This document shows, in pieces, positions 4,305 through 58,345 of a stretch of 64,000 bases of DNA. Made by a program: the position numbers and the translations under genes. The notes below the pieces were generated by a model, which did no database searches, was not told the DNA's origin, and saw only the letters and a program-made list of their open reading frames with translations. Source of the DNA: Aphrocallistes beatrix (Eukaryota; Porifera; Hexactinellida; Sceptrulophora; Aphrocallistidae); contig OY725488.1 in assembly GCA_963281255.1 (NCBI GenBank), positions 11,133,524 through 11,197,523 of the forward strand, in the 5' to 3' direction. Numbering within the stretch: the first letter of the stretch is position 1; every line of letters begins with the position of its first letter.

Positions 4305-4392
4305 GTTACAATGTTAAATTAACATACTCAAGTTTACTGACTATATTTATATGCTTTCTTTGTCAAATAATAATTATAGAGAAATCTAAAAA

Positions 4393-5592
4393 ATGGCGAT
4401 GAGATCACCGAAAAGGCAATGTTCACTGAATGCTTTGAGCGCGCTAGAGAGTGTAGAGAAGGAGGTTCACTCTTTCTTTGAGACTATCCTCGTTAAAGTG
4501 AAGGAGAGGAGAGACCATCTCCTGAAACAGCTTGACAACATAAGGGTGGAATATTTCAAAAAGGAAGAATCGAGGAAGAGTCACGTTGAAGAGTTAGAGA
4601 AGATGATCAGGAGGATAAGCGGAATTACTATTCATGAAAATCTCGTCGCGAGTTTGAAACTGGATCAACAGAACAAAATCAGAGATGAACTAGAGAATTT
4701 CCAGCAAGAAACTTCAATCCCTTTCCCACTGTTCAGAGCAGAAAATCTTAAACCTTGTCTAGAACAGTTGAGTCAGATAGGCAAGATTGAATTGAGCTCC
4801 ATTTATAGCGTTAAAGAAAAGCCTGTCACTAGCGTTGGGAAGGGAGGATTAGATCGACCGTTTGGCATCTGCCTTGACCAAGATGAAACGATTTATGTTT
4901 GTGATTGTGGCAACAGTAAGATCCAAGTTTTCTCGAAAGGAGGCGAGTTCATATCAGAATTCGGTAAAGGACATCTGGATAGACCTCACGGCATTGCGGT
5001 TACCGGTGAATGGGTGTTTGTAGCTGATTGGGAACTTAATACTGTCTCTCAATTTCAAAAGTCTGACAGCAAACTCGTGAAAAGAAGCGTTGGTGCAGGC
5101 CTTCAGAGACCCAAAGCTTTGGCATTAGACAGGGACAATGATGTGATGGTAGCGGACTCTGGTAACCATAGGATTGCAGTTTTGAATTCAAACTTAGAAT
5201 TCAAGAGGGAAATCGGGAAAGGGAAGCTGAAATACCCTTGTGATGTCCAAGTAAGAATGAATAAAATATTCGTCATCGATTACAGTAAGCCTAATAACGT
5301 CCACGTGTTTTCACAAGATGGCGAAGTGCTAATTAGTATGATAAATCTGAAACTAAGTCCGAGCTTGATTTTATCAAAGAACTTTGGACGCCATCATATA
5401 TTTCTATGCTTCGACAAGTTCGCGAATATTTTGATCAGTGCTACAGATGATAAGTCGATTCAGATCTACACGGTGGAAGGAAATCTCCTGCACTCCATAA
5501 AGTGTGAAGGTAGCCCTACTGGGATAGCAGTCACTGACGATGATACGATTGTGTGTGCCATGTACGACCCTTCTTGTATCAGATTCTACTAA
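4393..5592 (+). CDS. coiled-coil/NHL-repeat protein (TRIM-like, no RING or B-box)
   Basis: Single-exon, 399 residues. Residues about 20-110 form a charged helical region (ESVEKEVHSFFETIL, then KKEESRKSHVEELEKM) resembling the B-box C-terminal coiled coil of TRIM proteins. From about residue 144 to the end are NHL repeats forming a beta-propeller, for example RPFGICLDQDETIYVCD, RPHGIAV...VFVADW and RPKALALDRDNDVMVADSGNHRI. There is no RING, B-box, signal peptide or TM segment, so it is probably cytosolic. In TRIM proteins such propellers bind RNA or protein, and which ligand applies here is unknown. It is one of at least five related genes within 20 kb. Bases 4800-5002 are almost identical to part of the inverted paralogue at 13769-14959, suggesting gene conversion. 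The frame is intact. Confidence 0.88.
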   Translation: MAMRSPKRQCSLNALSALESVEKEVHSFFETILVKVKERRDHLLKQLDNIRVEYFKKEESRKSHVEELEKMIRRISGITIHENLVASLKLDQQNKIRDELENFQQETSIPFPLFRAENLKPCLEQLSQIGKIELSSIYSVKEKPVTSVGKGGLDRPFGICLDQDETIYVCDCGNSKIQVFSKGGEFISEFGKGHLDRPHGIAVTGEWVFVADWELNTVSQFQKSDSKLVKRSVGAGLQRPKALALDRDNDVMVADSGNHRIAVLNSNLEFKREIGKGKLKYPCDVQVRMNKIFVIDYSKPNNVHVFSQDGEVLISMINLKLSPSLILSKNFGRHHIFLCFDKFANILISATDDKSIQIYTVEGNLLHSIKCEGSPTGIAVTDDDTIVCAMYDPSCIRFY

Positions 5593-7185: not shown

Positions 7186-8385
7186 TTAGTAGAATTTGAT
7201 ATAAGAAGGTTCGTACATGGCACACACAATCGTATCATCATCAGTGACTGCTATCCCAGTAGGACTACCTTCACACTTTATGGAGTGCAGGAAGTTTCCT
7301 TCTACCGTGTAGATCTGAATCGACTTATCTTCTGTAGCACTGATTATAATATTTCCAAACTTATCGAAGCATAGAAAGACACTATGACGAACAGAGTTCT
7401 TTGGAGCTGTACTGTTCTCTAGCTTCAGATCTATCATGCTATTCAGCAGCTCACCTCTTAGTGAAAACACGTGTACGTTATGATGCTTGCTGTAATCGAC
7501 CACGAATATTTTGTTCATGCTCATTTGAACGCCACAAGGGTGTTTTAGTTTTTCTTTCCCTATTTCTCTTTTGAATTCCAAGTCTGAATTCAAAACTGCT
7601 ATTCTATGGTTGCCACAGTCCGCAACAAACACATCATTATTCCTATCTAATGCCAGTGCTTTTGGTTTCAAAAATCCTATCTCTACACTTCTATTCAGAA
7701 GTATATGATCGGACTTTTGGAATTTAGAGACAGCGTTGATTCCCCAATCAACCACAAATACCCATTCATCTGTGACTGCAATGCTATGAGGTCTATCTAG
7801 CTGTCCCTTCCCTAATTCTGATAGGAACTCACCTTCTTTTGAGAAAATCTGAATTCTTCTGTTTCCACTATCGCAGACATATATCGTTTCATCCTGGTCA
7901 AGACAAATACCATAAGGTCGATCCAATTCTTTGTTCCCAATATTCCTCGCTGGAATCCTTTTAGTTCTATAAATAGAACTTGATTCGATCTCTCCTATCC
8001 TTCCTAGCTGTTCTAAGTGATGTTTTAGATCTTCTGTTCTAAACACTGGAAAAGGGATAGAAGTTGATTGCTGGAACTTTTCCATTTCAACTGAAATATG
8101 ATGAAGATGGTGTTGTTTTACAGTCATAATTGGATTTTCCCGTATACTGATATTTCCAGTTTCCCTGTACATCTTTTCCAATTCTTCTACTTGCTTCTTT
8201 CTCGTATCCTCTTTTTTGAGGTATTCTAGTTCCATATTGTAGAGTTGGGAGAGTAGACAATTCCTTCTCTCTTCTACTCTTCCGAGGAGAACATCGAAGA
8301 ACGAGTGAATATGGTCTTCTACTTTTCTAAAGCTTACACTTTGTGTACAATATTCTCGAGATTTTGATGCCATCAAATTGCTCAT
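7186..8385 (-). CDS. coiled-coil/NHL-repeat protein
   Basis: Single exon, 399 residues from the ATG at 8385 (a second ATG at 8373 is also possible). Same architecture and length as the gene at 4393. The helical region carries VSFRKVEDHIHSFFDVLL and KKEDTRKKQVEELEKM; NHL repeats begin around RPYGICLDQDETIYVCDSG and continue through GIAVTDEWVFVVDWG to IQIYTVEGNFLHSIK. It is convergent with the 4393 gene. A TATA motif lies at 8438-8431. No RING, B-box or membrane segment was found. Function is inferred only at family level (protein- or RNA-binding propeller). Confidence 0.87.
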   Translation of the reverse strand: MSNLMASKSREYCTQSVSFRKVEDHIHSFFDVLLGRVEERRNCLLSQLYNMELEYLKKEDTRKKQVEELEKMYRETGNISIRENPIMTVKQHHLHHISVEMEKFQQSTSIPFPVFRTEDLKHHLEQLGRIGEIESSSIYRTKRIPARNIGNKELDRPYGICLDQDETIYVCDSGNRRIQIFSKEGEFLSELGKGQLDRPHSIAVTDEWVFVVDWGINAVSKFQKSDHILLNRSVEIGFLKPKALALDRNNDVFVADCGNHRIAVLNSDLEFKREIGKEKLKHPCGVQMSMNKIFVVDYSKHHNVHVFSLRGELLNSMIDLKLENSTAPKNSVRHSVFLCFDKFGNIIISATEDKSIQIYTVEGNFLHSIKCEGSPTGIAVTDDDTIVCAMYEPSYIKFY

Positions 8386-8430
8386 ACGTACAATTATATA
8401 AATCAAATATTAATTAATGAATTGAATATA

Positions 8431-13768: not shown

Positions 13769-14959
13769 TTAGTAGAATTTGATGCAAGAAAGATCATACA
13801 TGGCACACACAATCGTATCATCATTCTTCACTGCTATCCCAGTAGGGCAAACCTCACACTTAATGGAATGCAGGAGATCTCCTTCTACCGTGTAGATCTG
13901 TATCGACTTATCTTCTGTAGCACTGATTATGATATTTCCAAACTTATCGAAACATAGAAATATATGATGGCGTCCAAAGTTCTTTGCTATTATGCTGATA
14001 CTTATTTTTAGATTTATCATACTATGTAGCAGCTCACCAGCTTGTGAGAACACGTGGACATTATTAGGCTTGCTGTATCCCACCACGAATATTTTGGTCA
14101 GGTTTATTCGAATGCCACAAGGGTATTTTAGTTTCCCATTCCCTATTTCTCTCTCGAATTCTAACTCTGAATTATGAACTGCTATCCTATGGTTACCACA
14201 GTCTGCTACTAATACGACTTTATTTCTAAATAATGCCAGATCTTTCGGGTTTTGAAGCCCTGCAGCCGTATTTCTCTTCACAAGTTCAAAGTTGGATTTT
14301 TGAAATTTAAACACAGCGTTAGACCCCCAATCAGCTACAAACACCCACTCATCGTTAACCGCAATGCCGTGAGGTCTATCCAGATGTCCTTTACCGAATT
14401 CTGATATGAACTCGCCTCCTTTCGAGAAAACTTGGATCTTACTGTTGCCACAATCACAAACATAAATCGTTTCATCTTGGTCAAGGCAGATGCCAAAAGG
14501 TCGATCCAATCCTCCCTTCCCAACGCTAGTGACAGGCTTTTCTTTAACGCTATAAATATAACTCAATTCAATCCTTCCTATCTGACTCAGCTGTTCTAGA
14601 TAAGGTTTGATATTTTCTATATTGAACACTGGGAAAGGGGCTGGAGTTGGCTGCTGAAACTTTTCTATATCATCTAGAATTGCGTTCATTTGATGCAATT
14701 TCACATTCATCACTTGATTCTCCTGTATGTTAATTTTACTCGTCCGTTCAAGCATCTTTTCCAAGTCTTCCACCTGTTTCTTCCTCGCATTCTCTTTTTT
14801 ATCGTATTCTGTTTCCATATGCAAGAGTTCAATGAGTAACTGATCTCTTCTCTCCGCCACTGCCTTGAGGAGAATCTCAAAGGACGAGTAAATGTGTTCT
14901 CTCATTTCTTTAAAACCCGCACAGTGTGCAGAGTGGTTTTCTGATAATGTTTCTGCCAT
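13769..14959 (-). CDS. coiled-coil/NHL-repeat protein
   Basis: Single exon, 396 residues from the ATG at 14959 (MAETLSENHS). Helical region: FKEMREHIYSSFEILLKAV and KKENARKKQVEDLEKML. NHL repeats start near RPFGICLDQDETIYVCD and run through RPHGIAVNDEWVFVADWG and CGNHRIAVHNSELEF to IQIYTVEGDLLHSIK. The frame is intact. Bases 14356-14558 are nearly identical at DNA level to 4800-5002 of the plus-strand paralogue, while the flanks are clearly diverged. Same family-level function as its neighbours: a cytosolic propeller protein with unknown ligand. Confidence 0.87.
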   Translation of the reverse strand: MAETLSENHSAHCAGFKEMREHIYSSFEILLKAVAERRDQLLIELLHMETEYDKKENARKKQVEDLEKMLERTSKINIQENQVMNVKLHQMNAILDDIEKFQQPTPAPFPVFNIENIKPYLEQLSQIGRIELSYIYSVKEKPVTSVGKGGLDRPFGICLDQDETIYVCDCGNSKIQVFSKGGEFISEFGKGHLDRPHGIAVNDEWVFVADWGSNAVFKFQKSNFELVKRNTAAGLQNPKDLALFRNKVVLVADCGNHRIAVHNSELEFEREIGNGKLKYPCGIRINLTKIFVVGYSKPNNVHVFSQAGELLHSMINLKISISIIAKNFGRHHIFLCFDKFGNIIISATEDKSIQIYTVEGDLLHSIKCEVCPTGIAVKNDDTIVCAMYDLSCIKFY

Positions 14960-14995
14960 CTTTATAAAGTGGAGAACCAAAAAGAATTAACTATA

Positions 14996-15737: not shown

Positions 15738-17073
15738 CAGTCTGTCCCATAAAAAACTGGAATTCTTTTAAAAATCAACCAATCCAATTTTCTTAGTTAA
15801 AAGATAAGCCTAGAGATTATGTAATACAATGAATTTACTATTGATATTATAACCCTTTGTGAATTTGCTGAATCTTAATTCTAAGTTAATGATAATGCTT
15901 GTAAATAATGATGACGTCATGCTGACGCAATCATATTTGTAGTCTTTGTTATAATCTATGATTTATTCATTAATCCTAGCTCGAATTGCTTGATCATGTC
16001 TCAGATCGAGAAGATAAGGCATGCAATGTTACTTTTGGAGGGCAAGAAACATTCACCTAAAGAAATATGTCGCATTGTCGGTGTTTCTGTATCCACTGTG
16101 TATACTCTAATTTCAAAGCTGAAACACAATTGTTCCTACAATCGTAAAATAGGAAGCGGAAGACCACCTAAAACACTCCCGTTGATTGCAAATAGCGTTG
16201 CACAGCAAATTAGAAGGAAACCTTGGATTTCCCTCCGCGCTATTGCTCAGAAGTGTCCAGTTACAACCTCGAAAAACACTGTAGCACGATGCCTGAAGAA
16301 ATTGGACTATACGAAACCATACCCCATCAGCGTGCCATTGTTATCAGAAACGAATCGCCTCAAACGAATCCAATGGGCTCAGGAACACATCGACAAAGAT
16401 TGGCAACATGCAATATTTGCCGATGAAGCCTCGATCTGGGTATCGCGGGGTAGAATTAGGATGTGGACCAAAGGGGATTCGGTCAGACACACTACAACGG
16501 TCAAACACACTCAGAAGATTAATATCTGGACAGGGTTTTCTTCTATGGGAACGTTCCCACTGTGTATTTTCGATGAGAATTTAACTGCTGTATTGTTTGT
16601 CAAGATCCTAGAGGAGCATTTGTTAGAGCAGGCCAAGGTTTTTCACCAGGATGAATGGTTTATTGTGCAAGACAACGATCCGAAACACACTGCGAAGCAC
16701 ACTAAGGCTTGGATGGAACAATTTATGGACAAAAATAGGATTGACTGGCCAAGTCAAAGTCCAGACTTGAACCCTATAGAGAACTTATTCGCCTGGATCA
16801 AGTTAGAGCTAATCAAACGCAAACCAAAAACTAAAAAGGAGCTAATAGTTGAATTGACCAATGTCTGGGCCGGGATAGATGGATTTTTCTTACATTCCTA
16901 TTGGAACTCAATGCCCAAAAGGTGCAATCTAGTGTTAGAAAACAATGATTATAAAATAAAATATTGATAATGAATGGTTTTACTACACTAGTTTCGTAAC
17001 CAACTTTCTTAATAATAACTAACCTTTGAATGCCATACACTTTATTGATTCCAGTTTTTTATGGGACAGACTG
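15738..17073 (+). mobile_element. full-length Tc1-type transposon
   Basis: Terminal inverted repeats of at least 26 bp begin CAGTCTGTCCCATAAAAAAC on both ends. TA target duplications lie at 15736-15737 and 17074-17075. The element is 1336 bp and encodes one uninterrupted transposase (15996-16967). The ends share the CAGTNTGTCCC pattern with the element at 45817-47151 and the foldback element at 50277-51202. All structural parts needed for mobility are present. Confidence 0.93.
15996..16967 (+). CDS. Tc1/mariner transposase, apparently intact
   Basis: 323 residues from the ATG at 15996. The N-terminal helix-turn-helix region (KEICRIVGVSVSTVYTLISK) is followed by a GRPP AT-hook-like motif and a second HTH. 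The catalytic triad is visible: first Asp in IFADEASIW, second in VQDNDPKHT, Glu in SPDLNPIENLF. By my count 35 residues separate the second Asp and the Glu, one more than canonical Tc1 (DD34E). No stop or frameshift occurs. It should cut and paste the surrounding element; activity is inferred from integrity. Confidence 0.93.
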   Translation: MSQIEKIRHAMLLLEGKKHSPKEICRIVGVSVSTVYTLISKLKHNCSYNRKIGSGRPPKTLPLIANSVAQQIRRKPWISLRAIAQKCPVTTSKNTVARCLKKLDYTKPYPISVPLLSETNRLKRIQWAQEHIDKDWQHAIFADEASIWVSRGRIRMWTKGDSVRHTTTVKHTQKINIWTGFSSMGTFPLCIFDENLTAVLFVKILEEHLLEQAKVFHQDEWFIVQDNDPKHTAKHTKAWMEQFMDKNRIDWPSQSPDLNPIENLFAWIKLELIKRKPKTKKELIVELTNVWAGIDGFFLHSYWNSMPKRCNLVLENNDYKIKY

Positions 17074-22184: not shown

Positions 22185-22600
22185 CATATAGTACAAGTAA
22201 GCATTCATTTTAGCAAATCAATTTTAAATCATTTGTACATCTTCAAAGTAATTAGACAAATCAAAAATGATATAATCTGCTTTGTCTAGTATCGTAACCT
22301 GCGTAAGCCACGTTTTCATTATCTGATTAATTTTTAAAAAATAAATAATGGGAGCTAGAAATATATGACTATACAAGGCTAGAATTGAGAAAGATTCTAG
22401 AGAAGGCAGACAATAAAAAATGAACTTCAAAATGTCTGTCTGATATCTTAAGTTGTGATGTACTAAAGTTTAAAATTGTAGCTCGTATCAAATCGCTTTT
22501 CTAATAAATCATAAAATGGTATTACTAGCTACATCTCAAACCAGTTAGTGAAATATAATACCCGACAGTGCCAGCACATCATTTCAGAGGTCAGTACATT
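22185..22600. other. promoter-side flank of the NHL gene at 22691
   Basis: AT-rich, with no recognised gene or repeat. Confidence 0.4.
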
Positions 22601-22608
22601 GATATAAG
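22601..22608 (+). promoter_or_regulatory. TATA-like box of NHL gene at 22691
   Basis: gaTATAAG, about 88 bp upstream of the ATG at 22691. Confidence 0.4.
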
Positions 22609-22690
22609 TATAGAGCATATTCCATTTCAAATCAAATTAATTTGCTCTAAAATACTAAAATCCGTTACTAGAAAGGAAATACGTAATTCA

Positions 22691-23878
22691 ATGGCGAGGA
22701 GAGTAACACAAGTAGACTGCATACAGAGTGTAAGCTTTGAGAGAGTGAAAGAACACATTCGCGCTTTCTTCGATATTCTCCTCAGACGAGTAGCTGAGAG
22801 AAGGGATCAATTACTCACGCAGCTCTGCAACATAGAGTTTAAATACAACAGAAAAGAGGAATCGAGGAAGAAACAGGTGAAAGAATTGGAAATGATGCTT
22901 AAACAAATGATTCAAATTAGTGTGAAGGAGAATCCAGTCATGGATGTGAAACTGAATCAGATGAACATGATTATGGAAGAAAAGGAAAAGTGCCAGCAAC
23001 CAACTCCAGTACCTCTCATACAGTTCAAAGCAGATCTCAGCACTCATCTGGATGAACTGAATAAGATAGGCGTGGTGGATTCCAGTTCTATTTATAGCAT
23101 TAAAGGGAATCCTGTCTCGAGTTTTGGGAAGGGAGAATTGAATAGACCTTTTGGCATCTACCTTGACCAAGATGAGAAGGTCTATGTCTGCGATTTCGGA
23201 AATGGAAAGATTCAAGTTTTCTCGAAAGAAGGCGATTTCATATCAGAATTTGGTAAGGGGCAACTAGATAAGCCTCATGGCATTGCGGTTAATGATGAAT
23301 GGGTGTTCGTAGCTGATTGGGGAATGAATGCTGTCTCTAAGTTCCAAAAGTCCGACTATAAATTTGTGAATAGGAGTAAAGGGGCAGGACTTCAAAATCC
23401 AAAGGATTTGGCTTTGGACAAAGATAGTAATGTGCTTGTAGCGGACTATGGGAATAATAGGATAGCAGTTTTAGATTCTGAGTTGAAATTTAAAAGGAAA
23501 ATAGGTAAGGGGATGCTAAAACGTCCTTGCGGCATCCACATAAACCTGAACAAAATATTCGTAGTCGATTACAAAAGAAGTCATAACGTCCACGTGTTTT
23601 CACTAGCTGGAGATCTGGTACATAGCATCATAAACCTGAAAATAGGTAAATGCTTGATTTCAAAGAACTTTGGACGCCATCATATATTTCTATGCTTCGA
23701 TCAGTTTGGGAATTTTATAATCAGTGCCACAGAAGACAAGTCGATACAGATCTATACAATAGAAGGAAACCTCCTGCATTCCATTAAGTGTGAAGGTTAC
23801 CCTACTGGGATAGCAGCAAAGAAAGATGATACGATTGTGTGTGCTATGTATGATCCTTCTTGTATCAAATTCTGCTAA
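22691..23878 (+). CDS. coiled-coil/NHL-repeat protein
   Basis: Single exon, 395 residues. The ATG at 22691 (MARRVTQVDC) aligns with the starts of its paralogues; the frame extends upstream but without an ATG. Helical region: VSFERVKEHIRAFFDILLRR and KKQVKELEMMLKQM. NHL repeats include RPFGIYLDQDEKVYVCDFG, KPHGIAVNDEWVFVADWG and YGNNRIAVLDSELKF. The stretch encoding GRHHIFLCFD is identical in DNA to the gene at 4393, a sign of recent shared ancestry or exchange. The frame is intact. Same role as its relatives: a propeller scaffold with unknown ligand. Confidence 0.88.
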   Translation: MARRVTQVDCIQSVSFERVKEHIRAFFDILLRRVAERRDQLLTQLCNIEFKYNRKEESRKKQVKELEMMLKQMIQISVKENPVMDVKLNQMNMIMEEKEKCQQPTPVPLIQFKADLSTHLDELNKIGVVDSSSIYSIKGNPVSSFGKGELNRPFGIYLDQDEKVYVCDFGNGKIQVFSKEGDFISEFGKGQLDKPHGIAVNDEWVFVADWGMNAVSKFQKSDYKFVNRSKGAGLQNPKDLALDKDSNVLVADYGNNRIAVLDSELKFKRKIGKGMLKRPCGIHINLNKIFVVDYKRSHNVHVFSLAGDLVHSIINLKIGKCLISKNFGRHHIFLCFDQFGNFIISATEDKSIQIYTIEGNLLHSIKCEGYPTGIAAKKDDTIVCAMYDPSCIKFC

Positions 23879-31257: not shown

Positions 31258-33980
31258 TTAAAGCCATTTTCAGAATTTTCAAAATCATTTGTCGCTTCCT
31301 TCAATCAATAATTTGGCGTCGCTAGCACTGCCACTAACTCACATTTATAGTTCCATATTATAACACCTCTGTAACGTTTATCTATTCAGTGTCGCTCTAT
31401 TAGAACGAATGCAAAGTACAGTTAGGGAGAGGTGTGAAGTGGTGAGTGTCTCAGAAGTGGAAGCAGAAACTCAGTTTAGTGTACAGTTGATTGTGAAACT
31501 GAAACGAATGATTAAGCTAGTCAATAGTTAGCAGTTCTAAATTCAGATTAGCAACTGACAGCAATGACACATTCTAAATTTAACTTATTATTACCTAATA
31601 GAGGCTATGCTCTATAGCATACTGATCAGCTGTTAGTTCGAGGAGTTTGATAGGTTCAGATTCTGGTTCGGAGAGTTCATTCACATTCAGGTACTTCAGC
31701 TGTGTGAGGGTAGGAATCAGATTTCTGAGAGGTAGACAGGAATTGGAACTCAGTTCACAGTCGTATACGCACAGATGTTTAATGGTAGGATGGAAGAGCA
31801 GACCTCTACACAGACTCAACATTCCTGAGTCAGATAGGGAGACATCTTCAAAGTTCAAATATAGTAAAGAGGTGAGACTGTGAAGTGTCGAGCACCAGAG
31901 AGTGACGTCATCACAACTTATACGAGCATATCGTAGTTTTAACTTTACTAAGTTAGTACAGAACTGCAAACAACGGAGAAATCCATCTAAACTGCTTAAT
32001 CCAATATTCTCTAAATGCCTTAATTCTAATACTCTGATTGAGGCTCTGTTTGAGTCTAGCAGCTGTAGCAGACTGTCTGAGAGGTTGACACGAGTATTCT
32101 GATAATATCCTATATCTAGGTAGGACAGAGTAGAGAGGTGTGTTATGTGAGGTAGAATAGAGTAGTACTCCCATTCTATTTCTCTGAGGTTAGAGAATGT
32201 AGGCAGCAGAGAGAACAGCTGTTGATGGTATTCAGTGGGAATGAAATAGAGGTGTAATCCATTGATGTGTGTGGCAGAGGAAAGAGCTGAAAATAGAACT
32301 TCAAATTCAGAGGTTTTACTGTGACTATACATTAAGTTCTGACAAGTCGAAATCTGATTGGCTAGCAGACTGTAAGTGTCAGGAGGAAATTTATTATTAC
32401 ATAAACGCAGGCCTGATAGAATCTGATTGGCTGAGGAGGAGAATAAGGCTTTAACTGTTTCAGTTTCAGTTAGATTACTACGGAACAAGTTTAAACTTAG
32501 CTTAGTGTTAGACAGCTGAGTGCGTTGGATTGCATTCGCATAAGGGAGAACTTCTGTGTTAGATTTCGAGGATAAATTCAATGCTACACAATCCACAGTG
32601 CATTGTTCAACGGACTCTAATAGATGGAAGAGTTGTTCCGGAGTGACGTATCTTGAATCCACATAAATGAGGTGGATGTGGCTAAGAAGTGGCAGGGATT
32701 CGAGGAAACAGATCCACTCGTTGGGAGTCACAGCACTCAGAATGTACAAACAGATTGATTCAGGCAGGAAACGTCTGCACGCGTTGAAATATATCGAAAT
32801 GGATTCAGAGTTGGATTCACGTAACATGGCGTTCAATTGGAGAAACTTTTCTGTGAATTCACTCCAGCCTGTGTATCCGAATAAATTACCACTTTGAAAC
32901 CTGATTTGGACACATTCAGGAAGTTGGGCGATGGGAACAGGGCGGTGTCACGTGTTTATAAAGGAGATAAAACACATTCATTGACTCGTCGGACAACAGT
33001 CCACACAGGAACCTCACCACCATGCGGAACTGGGAGAACACGTCGTTCGTGTGCACAATGAACCTCACGGACAGACACTGGTCGTGCCATTTCGTGCTAC
33101 GAAGCCAGATGGCGCCAATGAACTCTTGGATGGTCAAATGAGCGAATGACCAAACCTTCGTGAAGTGACCCATCTTTTCCTCCCTCACATATTCATGCAC
33201 CAGACCCAGACAGTGGCTAGTCATTTTCACACTTCCAATTTGCAGTGACACCTTTTTGTCGGAGATCATCTCCCTCATGGCCACGCCCTGGAACGCGATA
33301 CAACCGATCTCGTGCAGACATTCCACAACGCCGCTATCCAGCTCACAGATTTCATTCACTTGGGTCAGCTCATCGAATCCCATTCGGTCCAGCTGTCTCC
33401 GTATCAGGTACAGAGTCAGCTCGTAGTAGAGTTGAGTCAGTGTGTGGATGCGAGCTCCGTCTTCACTTTTGAGCAGGGCAGCGAACAGGGACGCGTTCAC
33501 TGGAATCAGAGACAGCTGTTTCATCTCGTCGTAACGATCGAGGAGACCAGTGCACCGATCGAATAGGGAAGTGTCCTCAAATTGCTTCTCGAAGTACAGG
33601 TCCCTCTGTGCAGGAGAGAACCCCAACACCTGGAAGAAGGTGGAGATGTGGAGGTGGTGCGAAGTCGACACATCTGTCCAGGCGCCAGGCCTGCTGGTCA
33701 GTAGGATGAAGGACCGTGTCAGAGTCTGTCTGGTCAGGAGGAGGAAGAGAAGAGTTTTGTCGAAGGGGACATCTTTCGTGAATTCGTCCAGACTGTCTAC
33801 GATGAGTAGCAGTCCTTCTCCGTCCGTCTCCGTGATGTGTTTCGCCAGTTGTGTCGTCCAACTGGGACCGACTGGTAGACCGAGGCAAAGCCATTGGCAA
33901 ATGAATTCGGTGGTGATTGGGAAACCTGCGTCCACACGCGAAGACTCCATCTCGTGCCACTCTTTCTTCCTGCAGGGGAT
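31258..33980. repeat. segmental duplication, copy 1 (of 54914-57016)
   Basis: Homologous, in the same orientation, to 54914-57016. It begins at ttaaagccattttcagaatt and ends at cctgcaggggat. Copy 2 is shorter by 622 bp because of a deletion at its position 56349-56352. The NACHT part and the 3' flank are nearly identical between copies; the LRR part carries clustered differences. Confidence 0.9.
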
Positions 33981-33981
33981 A
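31595..33981 (-). pseudogene. NLR (NACHT-LRR receptor), 5'-truncated and frameshifted
   Basis: Minus-strand copy of the NLR at 55252-57972. 32916-33981 encodes the NACHT domain from IPCRKKEW onward: Walker B LLLIVDSLDEF, sensor ILLTSRPGAW, then a helical region to LLYKHVTPPC. A one-base shift near 32930-32945 breaks the frame; the next frame continues as LPECVQIRFQ into the LRR domain (31595-32836). The P-loop and N-terminal domain are missing: homology stops at 33981. The LRR part has about 11 units with LxLxx strands (LNLFRSNL, LRLCNNKF, LDIGYY). It keeps the about 207 residues between NACHT and LRR that copy 2 has lost. As it stands it cannot bind nucleotide. Confidence 0.85.
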
Positions 33982-34091
33982 CAAAAATGAGCCAAAATAG
34001 GTCGATATGAAAAGGTTCTACACTGACCTAGCTCTATTGTATCTAGACTAGTAAATAAGAAAATAGCAATAAAGTAAACCGGGGTGGAAAG

Positions 34092-34476
34092 CATCTATGA
34101 TCAGTGCCAATGGCCAGTGGCTATTGTCAGTTTATATCGTCGGTTCCTATGGGTAGCTTCTATGATCAGTGCCAATGTTCAGTGTCTATTGTCAGTTTAT
34201 ATCGTCGGTTCCTATGGGTAGCTTCTATGATCAGTGCCAATGGCCAGTGTCTATTGACAGTTTATATCGTCGGTCCCTATGGGTAGCTTCTATGATCAGT
34301 GCCAATGGCCAGTGGCTATTGTCAGTTTATATCGTCGGTTCCTATGGGTAGCTTCTATGATCAGTGCCAATGGCCAGTGTCTATTGACAGTTTATATCGT
34401 CGGTCCCTATGGATAGCTTCTATGATCAGTGCCAATGGCCAGTGTCTATTGTCAGTTTATATTGTTGGTTCAATAA
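34092..34476. repeat. 65-bp tandem repeat, six copies
   Basis: Unit ctatgatcagtgccaatggc ... tatgggtagctt; starts at about 34095, 34160, 34225, 34290, 34355 and 34420. Copies differ at only a few sites (ggctattg/tctattga). It lies immediately beyond the truncated 5' end of the NLR copy. Confidence 0.92.
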
Positions 34477-35230: not shown

Positions 35231-36564
35231 CTAGGACGTTCAATAAGTCTTGCGGGTCATGGTATATTTCGCAGACTATAATAGTAAACTAATCAGTTTT
35301 CATCTATAACACAACCTTATATCTTAGCTTGATTTACTGAAAATCTTAGCTTGATTGAATGAAAATTACAAATTTCTGATCAATTTATTCACACATCATT
35401 TCAACATACTGGTAAAATTATGGCTTCCAAGGATGACAATTTTAATCTGAAATGGAGAGCTTACATTGAGTTTCGCACAAAACTCCGCATCCAGCCGGTA
35501 CTCATCTACAACGAGTTGCAGGAGGTATTGTGCATGGACTGCCCTTTCAGATCAACGGTTGAGCGATGGGCTGCACGATTTCAGTCTGGAAATACAGACG
35601 TGTCAGATCTACCTCGATCTGGGAGACCGGTGTCCGTCAGCACCCCAGAGAATGTTGCTCTAATCGAGAGCAAAGTCAGGGAAGATAAGTGTATAACAAT
35701 CGAGCAGTTAGAGCAGAGTATGGAGATTTCATCGGGGGCCATTCATTCCATTCTGACTACTCAGCTTGGTTTCCGATCCATTCGCGGTAAGTGGGTCCCA
35801 CATAACCTCGGCGATCAACAAAAGCTCGCACGTGTAAAGACTGCCAAGAAACTCCTGGAAACCTATGACGGTTGTGATCCTAGACGCCTAGCTGAAGTTA
35901 TAACCGGGGATGAGACTTGGGTCTATTATTCAACCCCTTACAGCAAGTATAAAATGCGATCATGGGTGAGAGGGGACGAAAGACCGGCCCAAATGCCTAG
36001 GCCCGACTTCAGAAAACCGAAGGTCATGTACCCGATTTTCTTCAATAGTAGTGGAATAGTCTTGCAAATACCTTCTGAAAGTGGTAAAACAGTAAACGCA
36101 ACGTTTTTTACAAAGAAAGTACTTCCAAACCTAATCAAAAACGCGGAAGAGCTCCGAGCCAAGGCTAAAACGAGGGGAATAAAATTATTGATAGATAATG
36201 CTAGCTCCCATACAGCCAAGCTCACTAAAAATTTATTGGAATCAGAGGGGTTAAATTTACTTCCCCACCCACCCTACTCACCAGACCTAGCTCCCTGTTA
36301 TTTTTGGCTATTCCCCAAGCTCAAAATCTACCTTCGGGCAGGGAACTTGAGCCGAAACAAACCCTCGGGTCGGCCCTGTACCACTGCTTCAAATCCATCC
36401 CCGAAGAAGAGTACAGAAATGCATTCATAAAGTAGGTGGAAAGATTGAAACGCTGTGTAGAATTAGGAGGGGGGTATTTCGAATATATAATACATTGAAA
36501 CATATTCTATGACATTTATTTATTATTTTATGGTATGACCCGCAAGACTTTTTGAATGCCCTAG
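35231..36564 (+). mobile_element. mariner-type transposon, inactive
   Basis: Ends CTAGGACGTTCAATAAGTC and (inverse) CTAGGGCATTCAAAAAGTC, both followed by ttgcgggtcat. TA duplications at 35229-35230 and 36565-36566 were fixed by comparison with the empty site in the duplicate near 38205. It is 1334 bp and contains a defective transposase. Confidence 0.9.
35420..36490 (+). pseudogene. mariner transposase with dead catalytic site
   Basis: From the ATG at 35420 (MASKDDNFNLKWRAYIEFRT) the N-terminal HTH region, GDETWVYYS and LLIDNASSHTA are intact. The third catalytic Asp, expected in SPDLAPCDFWLFP, is Tyr (APCYFWLFP). After about 36330 the frame shifts; the other frame keeps LYHCFKSIPEEEYRNAFI, then has an internal TAG, then VERLKRCVELGGGYFE. 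It therefore has three independent lesions. Confidence 0.9.
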
Positions 36565-50208: not shown

Positions 50209-50276
50209 ATCAAATACATACATACATACATACATACATACATACATACATACATACATACATACATACATACATA
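50209..50276. repeat. (CATA)n microsatellite
   Basis: About 17 perfect tetranucleotide units, continuing as tacatacatacatac after the inserted element at 51203-51217. Confidence 0.95.
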
Positions 50277-51202
50277 CAGTGTGTCCCGAAATTATTGGCA
50301 GTAAACTTTAACTTAATGTAGTATCAAACTAGTACTTAGAAAGAGTATTATAATTTCAGGATAACTTCATTTATGTATTTTCTTACTATATTTACATCGT
50401 TTTGAGTCACACTATCATACCATGTGATTACCCAGCATCTTTTCTGAAATGCAAACTCATTCTATGTCTCAGTTTTTGTCAAAATCCCAATCACTATTTG
50501 CTATGGTATAGTAATGTTTTCTTCTATACCGCTTAATTTAGTTATAGAAATATCTAAGTATGTACATATCTTGTAGTTATGCAATTCTTAAGTGTTTGTT
50601 CAAAGGATTCGGCAAGATATAGGCTCTGGAAGTCAGAATTAGGGGTGTGTCAGTGATTATCCTACAAAAAAAAATTGAATTTGAGAAAACATAATTGTAT
50701 TTGTAGTCAATCCCCACAAATAGCACTAATTATTAGTTATTCCATTACTTTAAACAAGTTAAGTTCATAATTTTTAAGTTTATGGGCGAAATTCCACTTT
50801 TTACGTTGTTATCCTCTGCGAGCGTCAAACACACCCCTAATTCTGACTTCCAGAGCCTATATCTTGCCGAATCCTTTGAACAAACACTTAAGAATTGCAT
50901 AACTACAAGATATGTACATACTTAGATATTTCTATAACTAAATTAAGCGGTATAGAAGAAAACATTACTATACCATAGCAAATAGTGATTGGGATTTTGA
51001 CAAAAACTGAGACATAGAATGAGTTTGCATTTCAGAAAAGATGCTGGGTAATCACATGGTATGATAGTGTGACTCAAAACGATGTAAATATAGTAAGAAA
51101 ATACATAAATGAAGTTATCCTGAAATTATAATACTCTTTCTAAGTACTAGTTTGATACTACATTAAGTTAAAGTTTACTGCCAATAATTTCGGGACACAC
51201 TG
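50277..51202. mobile_element. giant foldback element, 374-bp near-perfect arms
   Basis: Arms 50277-50650 and 50829-51202 are inverse copies; I found no mismatch on reading. The loop is 178 bp. Ends CAGTGTGTCCCGAAATTATT match the CAGTNTGTCCC pattern of the two Tc1-type elements here. TA at 50275-50276 and 51203-51204, within a CATA microsatellite. No coding capacity. Confidence 0.93.
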
Positions 51203-51325
51203 TACATACATACATACGGATATACGGACGAGATATTCCGTACATATCATAAGAGCATCATCATCATGTCATAAGAGCAAAAATAAATTATATAAGCTGC
51301 AGTAAAAACAACAACAACAGTAATA

Positions 51326-54913: not shown

Positions 54914-57016
54914 ATTAAAGCCATTTTCAGAATTTTCAAAATCATTTGTCGCTTCCTTCAATCAATAATTTGGTGTCGCTAGCTCTGCCACTAACTCACA
55001 TTTATAGTTCCATATTATAACACCTCTGTGACGTTTATCTATTCAGTGTCGCTCTATTAGAACGAATGCAAAGTACAGTTAGGGAGAGGTGTGAAGTGGT
55101 GAGTGTCTCAGAAGTGGAAGCAGAAACTCAGTTTAGTGTACAGTTGATTGTGAAACTGAAACGAATGATTAAGCTAGTCAATAGTTAGCAGTTCTAAATT
55201 CAGATTAGCAACTGACAGCAGTGACACATTCTAAATCTAACTTATTATTACCTAATCGAGGTTATGCTTTATAGCATACTGATCAGCTGTTAGTTTGAGG
55301 AGTTTGATAGGTTCAGTTTCTGGTTCGGAGAGTTCATCCACACTCAGGTACTTCAGCTGTGTGAGGGTAGGAATCAGATTTCTGAGAGGTAGACAGGAAT
55401 TGGAACTCAGTTCACAGTCGCGTGCGTACAGATATTTAATGGTAGGATGGAAGAGCAGACCTCTACACAGACTCAACATTCCTGAGTCAGATAGGGAGAT
55501 ATGGTAGAAGTCCAAATATAGTAAAGAGGTGAGACTGTGAAGTGTCGAGCACCAGAGAGTGACGTCATCACAACTTATACGAGCATTTCGTAGTTCCAAC
55601 TCTACTAAGTTAGTACAGAACTGCAAACAACGGAGAAATCCATCTAAACTGCTGAATCCAATCTCCTCTAAATACCATAATTCCAATACTCTGATTGAGT
55701 GTCTGTTTGAGTCTAGCAGCTGTAGCAGACTGTCTGAGAGGTTGACACGAGTATCCTGATAATATCCTATACGTAGGTAGGACAGAGTAGAGAGGTGTGT
55801 TATGTGAGGTAGAATAGAGTAGTCATCCCATCTTATTTCTCTGAGGTTAGAGAGTGTAGGCAGCAGAGAGAACAGCTGTTGATGGTATTCAGTGGGAATG
55901 TCATAGAGGTGTAATCCATTGAAGTGTGTGGCAGAGGAAAGAGCTGAAAATAGAACTTCACTTTCAGAGGTTTCAGTGTGCATATATTGTAAGTTCTGAC
56001 AAGTCGATATCTGATTGGTCAGCAGACTGTAAGTGTCAGGAGGAAATTCACTATAATATAAACTCAGGCCTGATAGAATCTGATTGGCTGAGGAGGAGAA
56101 TAAGGCTTTAACTGTTTCAGTTTCAGTTAGCTTACTAAAGATCAGGTCTAAACTTAGCTTAGTGTTAGACAGCTGAGTGCGTTGGATTGCATTCGCATAA
56201 GGAAGAACTTTTGTGCTAGATTTTGAGTATAAATTCAATGCTACACAATCTACAGAGCATTGTTCAACGGACTCTAATAGATGGAAGAGTTGTTCCGGAG
56301 TGACGTAATCAGAATTCACATAAATGAGGTGGATGTGGCTAAGAAGTGGCAGACATTCCACAACGCCGCTATCCAGCTCACAGATTTCGTTCACTTGCGT
56401 GAGCTCATCGAATCCCATTCGGTCCAGCTGTCGCCGTATCAGGTACAGAGTTAGCTCGTAGTAGAGTTGTGTCAGTGTGTGGATGCGAGCTCCGTCTTCA
56501 CTTTTGAGCAGGGCAGCGAACAGGGACGCGTTCACTGGAATCAGAGACAGCTGTTTCATCTCGTCGTAACGATCGAGGAGACCAGTGCACCGATCGAACA
56601 GGGAAGTGTCCTCAAATTGCTTCTCGAAGTACAGGTCCCTCTGTGCAGGAGAGAACCCCAACACCTGGAAGAAGGTGGAGATGTGGAGGTGGTGCGAAGT
56701 CGACACATCTGTCCAGGCGCCAGGCCTGCTGGTCAGTAGGATGAAGGACCGTGTCAGAGTCTGTCTGGTCAGGAGGAGGAAGAGAAGAGTTTTGTCGAAG
56801 GGGACATCTTTCGTGAATTCGTCCAGACTGTCTACGATGAGTAGCAGTCCTTCTCCGTCCGTCTCCGTGATGTGTTTCGCCAGTTGTGTCGTCCAACTGG
56901 GACCGACTGGTAGACCGAGGCAAAGCCATTGACAAACGAATTCGGTGGTGATTGGGAAACCTGCGTCCACACGCGAAGACTCCATCTCGTGCCACTCTTT
57001 CTTCCTGCAGGGGATG
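54914..57016. repeat. segmental duplication, copy 2 (of 31258-33980)
   Basis: Begins ttaaagccattttcagaatt and ends cctgcaggggat, matching 31258-33980 with a 622-bp gap at 56349-56352. Beyond 57016 this copy continues into the rest of the NLR gene, whereas copy 1 does not. Confidence 0.9.
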
Positions 57017-57972
57017 CACAGAGAGTAGGAGAATCTGGACACTTCGTTATTCCCGAATCTCAGTGCTGTGCGGTTGCACAGGAATGTTTTCCCGCAACCG
57101 GGGTTTCCGATGAAACACCAAATTTCTGGTTTAGACGGGTCGCAGGATTTCAGTTCTTTAGTGAAGTTTATCGGTTCAACTTCCACTTCTTTATTCGCAA
57201 TTTTCCGTAAATACGCAATTTCGTTATATGTCGTCTCATCTTCCAGTTTAACACTTCTCGGTTTCTGCTTGAGTATTGTCAGATCGACGTACACCTTCTC
57301 TAGGCTGACAGCTTTATCATTCCCTAACATCTGTTTCACGTCCCTGAACTGGGTTTCTAGATGGATTTTTACGGATTTTTCCCATTCGATTATTCGCTTT
57401 CCGAAGCGAATCAATTCTTTCTTGAATTTGGAAGTGAATTCTTGATCTTCCATATTCTGAAAAGCTGTCTTGTACGGTTGGAGTCTTTGAACCATTTCGT
57501 TCAGTTTGAGGCTGTTCAGGAGTTGAGATAAACTGGACATGTCTCTTTGAATCAGATTGTTTGTGGCTATTAGTTGCATCGTAGTTTCGAAGCGAATATC
57601 TTCACTGCTTTTTCTTTTCGAATATCGCATGTGTAATAGTTTCAAGTTGTTGGATGATATTCCATTCTTTAGCATTTCAATGAAGCTTTTGATGGTTAAT
57701 GGTTCTATGGTTAGAGTCACAGGGGAGTCAGTGCACAGCCATTTGATAGTGAGAGCGATAGGGATTAAATCTGGTCGTATGGTGTTAAGGGATTGGTAGA
57801 AACTGAATGGGTTGAATTGTGTCCATTCTTTCAATGCGTATAGAAAGTTTGTTGCATCAGATTCCCAATGGCAGACACCTTCTGGTACAGACAGAGCATT
57901 GAGCAGTTTCTTGATGTCATCTCTGCTAAGTCTCTCTGTGAGTTCTTTCAGGTTGAAAAGATCTTCATCCAT
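55252..57972 (-). CDS. NLR (NACHT-LRR) receptor, open, internally deleted
   Basis: 906 residues from the ATG at 57972 (MDEDLFNLKELTERLSRDD), which follows a strong splice acceptor (gtctttctacag), so a 5' untranslated exon is likely. Residues 1-95 look like a helical death-fold domain (DDIKKLLNALSVPEGVCHW). A helical linker follows. NACHT: P-loop GNPGCGKT near residues 289-296, Walker B LLLIVDSLDEF, sensor ILLTSRPGAW. The C-terminus is about 11 LRR units (LSLYYSEF, LRIGYY, LELWYLEEI, LDFYHISL). Compared with 31595-33981, about 207 residues between NACHT and LRR are missing: ELDSGVVECL joins directly to PLLSHIHLIY in frame. NLRs are cytosolic sensors that oligomerise on ligand binding; this deletion removes the helical region that normally couples the two domains, so signalling competence is uncertain. 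Confidence 0.88.
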   Translation of the reverse strand: MDEDLFNLKELTERLSRDDIKKLLNALSVPEGVCHWESDATNFLYALKEWTQFNPFSFYQSLNTIRPDLIPIALTIKWLCTDSPVTLTIEPLTIKSFIEMLKNGISSNNLKLLHMRYSKRKSSEDIRFETTMQLIATNNLIQRDMSSLSQLLNSLKLNEMVQRLQPYKTAFQNMEDQEFTSKFKKELIRFGKRIIEWEKSVKIHLETQFRDVKQMLGNDKAVSLEKVYVDLTILKQKPRSVKLEDETTYNEIAYLRKIANKEVEVEPINFTKELKSCDPSKPEIWCFIGNPGCGKTFLCNRTALRFGNNEVSRFSYSLCIPCRKKEWHEMESSRVDAGFPITTEFVCQWLCLGLPVGPSWTTQLAKHITETDGEGLLLIVDSLDEFTKDVPFDKTLLFLLLTRQTLTRSFILLTSRPGAWTDVSTSHHLHISTFFQVLGFSPAQRDLYFEKQFEDTSLFDRCTGLLDRYDEMKQLSLIPVNASLFAALLKSEDGARIHTLTQLYYELTLYLIRRQLDRMGFDELTQVNEICELDSGVVECLPLLSHIHLIYVNSDYVTPEQLFHLLESVEQCSVDCVALNLYSKSSTKVLPYANAIQRTQLSNTKLSLDLIFSKLTETETVKALFSSSANQILSGLSLYYSEFPPDTYSLLTNQISTCQNLQYMHTETSESEVLFSALSSATHFNGLHLYDIPTEYHQQLFSLLPTLSNLREIRWDDYSILPHITHLSTLSYLRIGYYQDTRVNLSDSLLQLLDSNRHSIRVLELWYLEEIGFSSLDGFLRCLQFCTNLVELELRNARISCDDVTLWCSTLHSLTSLLYLDFYHISLSDSGMLSLCRGLLFHPTIKYLYARDCELSSNSCLPLRNLIPTLTQLKYLSVDELSEPETEPIKLLKLTADQYAIKHNLD

Positions 57973-58345
57973 TATCTGTAGAAAGACAAGTGTTAAAGAT
58001 GAGAGTTTGCAAAACTCAAATAGAGTAGAACCTCCATAGGTGTGTGAACTCGCGACGGCGATAATATGCCTACAAGCCCATTCACACTTATGACTTTGTA
58101 CCGTCATCACGAGAAATAATAAGATGTTTTAAATAAATCCAAAGCTAGTAATTTCAAGTCATTTGGTTCTTTTCGATCAATAATGTAACATAGAAGATCC
58201 GAAATTTAAGTTCATGTCAGGTCAAGTCATGAACCGCGACCTCATGATAAGCTGAATATTGGGAACAGAAACCCGTTCTCTTAGTACTTCCCCAAAATAA
58301 AGAGTTTAATTATGATAAGAAAATAATTTTTGTTCATCATTAACT

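What the first reader, a model, noticed from the sequence alone, without database searches (positions are those of the whole stretch)
31595..32836. NLR paralogues differ mostly at LRR beta-strand positions, with a frozen framework
Comparing the LRR region here with 55252-56350, I count about 52 residue differences and only about 10 silent ones. They cluster in the LxLxx strand of successive repeats: LNLFRSNL/LDLIFSKL, LRLCNNKF/LSLYYSEF, IEWEYYS/IRWDDYS, LELRHLENI/LELWYLEEI, LKLRYARI/LELRNARI, LNFEDVSL/LDFYHISL, LCVYDCEL/LYARDCEL. Helical framework stretches between them are identical even at silent sites. The few silent changes sit inside the same clusters. LRR beta-strand residues form the ligand-facing surface, so this is either intense diversifying selection or a process that places variation specifically in these patches (patchwise conversion from a gene family, or targeted mutation). 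The absence of silent change in the framework favours a patchwise mechanism over long selection.
Basis: partly seen in the sequence, partly recalled or inferred. Interest (0 to 1): 0.88.

Follow-up and report, generated by a model that had tools for sequence, protein, structure and literature searches.

The report
Immune-receptor paralogues varying at contact surface
Two neighbouring animal immune-receptor genes, and close relatives in the same genome, differ mostly at the residues that line the presumed binding surface; this looks like very strong natural selection for new binding specificities, as known from plant resistance genes, rather than a special mutation or copying machine.

Summary
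The two minus-strand NACHT-LRR genes in the window differ by 52 residues and 10 silent codons in the LRR, clustered at LRR strand positions. The genome (100.5 Mb, unnamed animal) holds 24 near-full-length copies, these two included, and at least 94 NACHT loci; the three subfamilies sampled show the same pattern. In 11 disjoint pairs, exposed strand codons differ in amino acid at 266/713, buried strand codons at 61/562, framework at 139/2458, while silent change is similar (4.6%, 5.6%, 3.3%). Codon-model omega at exposed codons is 4.4-6.0.

The inferred patchwise mechanism is not supported. Silent changes cluster in strands for the window pair (p=0.024), only marginally in the other ten pairs (p=0.09). 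Variable codons inside a strand assort independently. Patches are mostly unique; of three gene-A patches searched genome-wide, two have no match within 3 mismatches and one has a single 2-mismatch match. A dead copy shows no clear strand bias (few changes). Best explanation: duplication and long-tract conversion keep copies similar while intense diversifying selection replaces single residues on the concave LRR face, as in plant NLRs. A modest excess of silent change in strands stays unexplained.

The parts
31595..32947 (-). Gene A, LRR-encoding open frame (450 codons); 13 LRR strands
31670..32680 (-). Gene A: stretch from first to last of the 13 LRR strands that carry the variable positions
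   Evidence: motif set, strands; coordinates reckoned by hand from A1 residues 56-392
32916..34094 (-). Gene A, upstream open frame with part of NACHT and an HD2-like stretch (HD2 below Pfam's cut-off); in another frame than the LRR, 5' end of the gene missing
   Evidence: PF05729 2.6e-11
31258..31594 (-). 3' flank of gene A, 98.5% identical to that of gene B over 337 bp
34090..34471 (.). 65-bp tandem repeat (5.9 copies) where the 5' half of gene A would be; matches to it lie in the fetched stretch of 7 of 19 other copies
55252..58128 (-). Gene B, single open frame of 958 codons (N-terminal part, NACHT, LRR) lacking about 620 bp that gene A has (HD2 and first LRR part)
   Evidence: PF05729 2.6e-16
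54915..55251 (-). 3' flank of gene B, nearly identical to that of gene A

Best explanation
This is a multigene family of germline animal NLR (NACHT-LRR) receptors. Tandem and segmental duplication, and gene conversion over hundreds to more than a thousand bases, keep the NACHT-HD part, the LRR framework and the 3' flank similar between copies (similarity and sharp breakpoints shown; conversion inferred from them). On that background the outward-facing residues of the LRR strands are replaced again and again, one codon at a time, by strong diversifying selection for new binding specificities (selection shown statistically; binding of microbial or non-self ligands inferred from the family). Framework and core leucines change little; that purifying selection holds them is inferred and only partly supported by the rates. 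The two window genes are one broken and one truncated member that preserve this record.
For: Amino-acid change at exposed codons 266/713 against 139/2458 in framework over 11 disjoint pairs; pN/pS 3.4 exposed, 0.98 buried, 0.67 framework; exposed N versus S Fisher 4.8e-18. If silent sites in exposed codons were hit as often as replacement sites, 115 silent changes would be expected, 34 counted. Codon ML omega at exposed codons 6.0, 4.4, 4.4 in three sets; lnL gain over omega=1, kappa=2: 15.1, 10.3, 10.7. L011/L012, a 7.1-kb duplicated block at 97.1% identity, have 19/64 exposed codons changed but 1/50 buried, 2/223 framework. Entropy peaks at LRR positions 5, 7, 8 and is near zero at 4. Changes at exposed codons fall on codon positions 1, 2, 3 as 180, 136, 88; in framework 83, 61, 97. 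Same in two further subfamilies. L037/L038 identical for 487 codons, then 123 differing codon columns. No linkage between variable codons of one strand. Model resembles ribonuclease inhibitor and NLRC4 LRRs.
Against: Silent change is somewhat higher in strands than framework (OR 1.55, p=0.025 with the window pair; 1.41, p=0.09 without). L024/L025, similarly close at silent sites, show only 3/65 exposed changes, so the process is not clock-like. Omega is about 1.2 in the g1 framework and 2.0 at g1 buried codons, so purifying selection there is not shown for that set. Pooled private replacements in six broken or truncated copies show the same exposed excess (15/414 sites, framework 43/3060) as the intact ones (43/1217, framework 90/8806): breakage has not erased the pattern, perhaps because it is recent. 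Only one assembly was available; no population data, expression or ligand.
Confidence: 0.86

Rival explanations
1. Patchwise gene conversion: short strand-sized segments are copied in from a pool of donor paralogues, while the framework stays as it is.
For: Long tracts of identity with sharp ends exist in the family. In the window pair silent changes sit with the replacements. L012 strand 4 shares three codons with L024/L025 of another group, gene A strand 3 has a 2-mismatch match at L020, and a few whole patches are shared inside g1 (for example strand 9 in L012, L014, L019; strand 6 in L009, L012, L014).
Against: Codons within a strand assort independently: pairs sharing at least 2 variable codons 189 observed, 190.4 expected between groups; 33 and 33.1; 15 and 13.8 within g1. 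At least 22 of 23 patches are distinct at 9 of 13 strands, and most sharing is L024/L025. Two of three tested gene-A patches have no match with up to 3 mismatches elsewhere in the genome. The codons L012 shares with L024 are flanked at once by silent differences, so a tract would be about 20 nt.
Confidence: 0.06
2. Targeted mutation of the strand codons (hypermutation, deaminase or template-switching), with or without selection afterwards.
For: Silent excess in strands pooled (OR 1.55, p=0.025); 100 of 286 differing exposed codons differ at two or three nucleotides; at 37 hypervariable columns some pairs are at the random-mismatch level (0.72 and 0.76 against 0.75; L011/L012 0.44). Broken copies keep the exposed excess.
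Against: Silent change at exposed codons is at most about twice the framework (OR 1.39, hand-reckoned 95% interval 0.8-2.3 from the counts) while amino-acid change is 6.6 times higher; buried codons between variable residues change much less. In the broken copy L028 private changes fall evenly on codon positions in framework (6/135, 6/158, 4/114) and are not clearly commoner in strands (7/114 against 16/407; small counts).
Confidence: 0.06
3. Assembly or haplotype artefact: some close pairs are alleles or misassembled duplicates, not paralogues.
For: L011/L012 upstream flanks are about 98% identical, and a further upstream block of 5.9 kb is 99.75% identical.
Against: Long similarity ends about 1.3 kb past the stop codon and a 2.85-kb stretch is present in one only; near-full-length copies lie on six contigs and most fetched ones have a long open frame. 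Even if some pairs were alleles, the strand bias would stand.
Confidence: 0.02

Closest known systems
Plant NBS-LRR clusters such as coffee SH3-CNL (PMC3113787) and Arabidopsis RPP8 (PMC6771003)
   Same: Coffee: positive selection found only for x residues of xxLxLxx, gene conversion between paralogues. RPP8: amino-acid diversity highest at the X sites, intergenic conversion (passages, some from the abstracts, seen)
   Different: Plant NBS-LRR proteins; here animal NACHT-LRR genes with the whole protein in one open frame
Plant highly variable NLRs, hvNLRs (PMC8226289)
   Same: Exposed residues of the LxxLxLxx array on the concave LRR beta-sheet carry the predicted binding sites (passages seen)
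   Different: Defined by allelic diversity within a species; here only paralogues of one assembly were seen
Zebrafish NLR-B30.2 family (PMC4852459)
   Same: Large animal NLR family, gene conversion acting differently on NACHT and recognition domain, shuffled N-termini (passages seen)
   Different: There the B30.2 domain is under positive selection and the LRRs are said not to be particularly variable; here it is the LRR
Sponge NLR repertoires (Dysidea avara, PMC12909245)
   Same: 126 NACHT+LRR genes in an early-branching animal (passages seen)
   Different: No selection analysis: the word 'selection' has 0 occurrences in the main text
Fungal NLRs with WD, ANK, TPR repeats (PMC4986451)
   Same: Positively selected sites on the concave repeat face, with one exception in ANK (passages seen)
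   Different: Other repeat types, no LRR; repeats are shuffled within and between genes

Membership tests
Animal NLR (NACHT-LRR) | NACHT domain | tested here: met
   PF05729 in the gene A piece 2.6e-11 and gene B 2.6e-16; 94 of 94 scored matches over the cut-off in the genome, 176 candidates
Animal NLR (NACHT-LRR) | C-terminal LRR domain | tested here: met
   No Pfam LRR hit for the gene A LRR frame, but 13 motif repeats and an AF2 model (pLDDT 76.9, 7 sequences) matching NLRC4 and ribonuclease inhibitor
Animal NLR (NACHT-LRR) | N-terminal death-fold domain (optional) | tested here: inconclusive
   None reported for gene B; 2 of 120 listed homologues carry PF01335
NLRs under diversifying selection at the concave LRR face | Replacement excess at exposed strand residues, not in framework | tested here: met
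   exceptions: pair L024/L025, and g1 buried and framework omega not below 1
NLRs under diversifying selection at the concave LRR face | Allelic diversity within the species | not testable with these tools
   one assembly only
Donor-templated patch diversification (conversion cassettes; VLR-like, recalled) | Donor copies of the patches in the genome | tested here: not met
   3 of 13 gene-A patches searched genome-wide: two unmatched within 3 mismatches, one with a 2-mismatch match at L020; 22 of 23 patches distinct at 8 of 13 strands, 23 of 23 at one, fewer at four
Donor-templated patch diversification (conversion cassettes; VLR-like, recalled) | Linked codons within a patch | tested here: not met
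Targeted hypermutation | Silent sites in the target mutate as fast as replacement sites | tested here: not met
   34 silent changes counted, 115 expected in exposed codons
Targeted hypermutation | Differences between tissues of one animal | not testable with these tools
   no reads available

The most novel reading that the evidence does not exclude
On top of selection, the strand codons of these animal NLR genes have a raised input of variation (locally higher mutation, multi-nucleotide changes or conversion tracts of about 20 nt), giving a semi-targeted germline generator of binding sites.
Probability: 0.09. Interest if true: 0.88.

Novelty: new member of a known kind. Interest (0 to 1): 0.5.

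Why it matters
It points to an animal genome with a large germline NLR repertoire whose LRR concave face evolves like that of plant resistance proteins. That marks the likely ligand-binding surface residue by residue, supports use of animal LRRs as direct recognition modules (unlike the zebrafish family), and supplies many young gene pairs on which the open question of how invertebrates create receptor diversity can be tested.

Tried and rejected
Patchwise conversion and targeted mutation were tested and disfavoured (see rivals). An adenine-directed retroelement mechanism (recalled, no call) was set aside because framework adenines stay put in the alignment and all three codon positions change at exposed codons; no reverse transcriptase was looked for. 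The organism was not identified: mitochondrial COX1 has 11 in-frame TGA and AGR codons where I recall conserved serines, which I recall for glass sponges and many bilaterians; Xenoturbella was considered and dropped (paper: 43% GC, NLRs not found; window 37% GC). The homologue search returned 359 unnamed proteins, 120 listed, which I take to be largely the same assembly; this was not tested. The private-change comparison of broken and intact copies has little power at exposed sites, since few of them are uniform, and its pooled result does not separate the two classes.

Counts and omissions: of 50 matches, 24 are near full length (two are the window genes); 20 were fetched with flanks, 4 as LRR only, the rest not. 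L028 was left out of the 23-copy alignment because it is broken in several places. The 11 pairs use 12 of 23 copies of the main family, 6 of 6 and 4 of 4 fetched of the other two; I chose the pairs by closeness, and they include broken or truncated copies (L009, L019, L022). L025 was left out of the linkage test. The group called g1 has 7 copies in LRR counts and 5 in whole-gene counts.

Full report
WHAT IS THERE. The window holds two minus-strand NACHT-LRR genes. Gene A consists of an LRR frame (31595-32947) and a NACHT/HD frame (32916-34094) in different phase, with its 5' part missing and a 65-bp tandem repeat in its place.

THE FAMILY. The window lies in an unnamed 100.5-Mb, 28-contig genome. 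A DNA search with the A LRR gave 50 matches; 24, the window genes included, are near full length, on six contigs. A NACHT profile search gave 94 matches, all over the cut-off; 94 of 176 candidates were scored, so this is a lower bound. Of 20 family members fetched with flanks, 14 have one open frame of 1061-1182 codons, stop to stop. Two further subfamilies were sampled with 6 and 4 copies.

WHERE THE VARIATION IS. Strand positions were set from the canonical motif (3, 5, 7, 8, 10 exposed; 4, 6, 9, 11 buried; recalled; the LxxLxLxx layout is described in passages of PMC8226289). In seven close copies 42/65 exposed, 11/50 buried and 12/223 framework columns are aa-variable (exposed versus framework Fisher 4e-23). 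Mean entropy in 12 copies is 1.5-1.6 bits at positions 5, 7 and 8, 0.03 at position 4 and 0.11 in framework. An AlphaFold model of the A LRR (7-sequence alignment, mean pLDDT 76.9) gives strands at the same places; strand-plus-turn residues are variable in 52/128 against 6/128 for helices. Foldseek finds NLRC4 and ribonuclease-inhibitor LRRs.

SELECTION OR PATCHES. Over 11 disjoint pairs of close copies from three subfamilies, aa-differences are 266/713 exposed, 61/562 buried, 139/2458 framework; silent differences among codons with unchanged residue are 20/437, 27/486 and 76/2273. Replacement is thus raised 6.6-fold at exposed codons, silent change at most modestly (exposed OR 1.39, p=0.20; whole strands OR 1.55, p=0.025; without the window pair OR 1.41, p=0.09). 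Per site, 115 silent changes would be expected at exposed codons if silent and replacement sites were hit alike; 34 were counted. Codon models give omega 6.0, 4.4 and 4.4 at exposed codons, with lnL gains of 15.1, 10.3 and 10.7 over omega 1 and kappa 2; buried omega was 2.0, 0.50 and 1.3, framework 1.2, 0.19 and 0.80. Codon states inside strands are unlinked. At least 22 of 23 patches are distinct at 9 of 13 strands; sharing is mainly L024/L025, with some inside g1 and at strand 1. Of three silent-bearing patches of gene A, two have no other match in the genome within 3 mismatches; the third has one with 2 mismatches, at L020. In the dead copy L028 private changes do not follow codon position, and strands carry 7/114 against 16/407 in framework. 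Against a simple reading, six broken or truncated copies pooled keep the exposed excess of private replacements (15/414 sites against 43/3060 in framework) seen in intact ones (43/1217 against 90/8806).

A CLEAN PAIR. L011 and L012 lie in a duplicated block of 7.1 kb, 97.1% identical. NACHT has 2/163 silent codons, HD 4/208, LRR framework 1/219, while 19 of 64 exposed codons changed residue, with 1/50 buried and 2/223 framework changes. Against this, L024/L025, also close, changed only 3/65 exposed codons, so replacement is episodic.

HOMOGENISATION. Within g1 (5 whole genes) the first 215 alignment columns are far diverged (pS 0.49), the pre-NACHT part less (0.14), NACHT 0.05, the next part 0.065, the first LRRs 0.05 and the last LRRs 0.02. 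The 3' flank is 97.6-98.5% identical over 337-459 bp in four pairs and similar for longer in others. L037 and L038 are identical over 487 codons from the start of the fetched stretch and then differ at 123 codon columns, gaps included. Long-tract conversion or recombination is the likely cause and explains a quiet framework without any patchwise device. Why LRR framework silent divergence is lower than in NACHT and HD in g1 (46/4538 in 21 pairs against 59/1624 and 100/2062 in 10 pairs) is not settled; frequent or selected conversion at the 3' end is my guess. A 65-bp tandem repeat like the one in gene A matches the fetched stretches of 7 of 19 other copies (L011-L014, L017, L018, L020), as arrays in four of the seven scanned for tandem repeats, and might promote exchange.

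LITERATURE. Plant NLR clusters show x-residue selection together with conversion (PMC3113787, PMC6771003; passages), and hvNLRs the concave array (PMC8226289). In zebrafish the B30.2 domain, not the LRR, is selected (PMC4852459). A sponge NLR survey does not treat selection (PMC12909245); a review mentions polymorphic LRRs of invertebrate NLRs (PMC7308585). Searches, limited to open-licence papers and seen as listings, showed no title on concave-face hypervariability in an expanded animal NACHT-LRR family; a Carnivora receptor-selection study (PMC9739989) was listed and not read, and the Amphimedon NLR paper (recalled) was not read.

VERDICT. A real and strong pattern, best read as diversifying selection on direct-recognition LRRs. 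The case for a patchwise mechanism rests on the window pair and does not generalise well; a modest rise of silent change in strands keeps a small probability for raised input of variation.

Noticed in passing
window 4390-5592 (+), 7186-8409 (-), 13769-14986 (-), 22559-23878 (+): Four related ORFs, 75-82% identical at DNA level; Pfam NHL repeats in the three that were scanned.
   Followed up: no
window 50275-50650 and 50829-51204: Perfect 376-bp inverted repeat with a short spacer, next to an ATAC microsatellite at 50214-50278.
   Followed up: no
window 15915-16967 (+) and 35363-36430 (+): ORFs with DDE transposase domains, Tc1/mariner-like by recall.
   Followed up: no
window 34090-34471; L011, L012, L013, L014, L017, L018, L020: The 65-bp tandem repeat that takes the place of gene A's 5' half matches 7 of 19 other fetched copies; tandem arrays upstream of L011, L012, L013, L020. 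It may promote unequal exchange.
   Followed up: partly
L013, L014, L020, L029, C-terminal end of the LRR: Variable number of K/EPETEP-type repeats in the protein tail.
   Followed up: no
L010-L014, L017, L018, L020, first 215 alignment columns: N-terminal part is far diverged between copies with near-identical NACHT; among these eight, L010 is closest there to L020 on another contig, which suggests N-terminal shuffling.
   Followed up: partly
L044/L045 (C1:11585500-11593499 and 11628800-11636799): A block of at least 5.9 kb upstream of L012/L011 is 99.75% identical although the adjacent gene blocks are 97.1%; no ORF of 150 codons or more in L044.
   Followed up: partly
L016, L018 before strand 8: Extra strand-like insertion of about 9 residues in L016 and 6 in L018, an apparent partial repeat duplication.
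   Followed up: no
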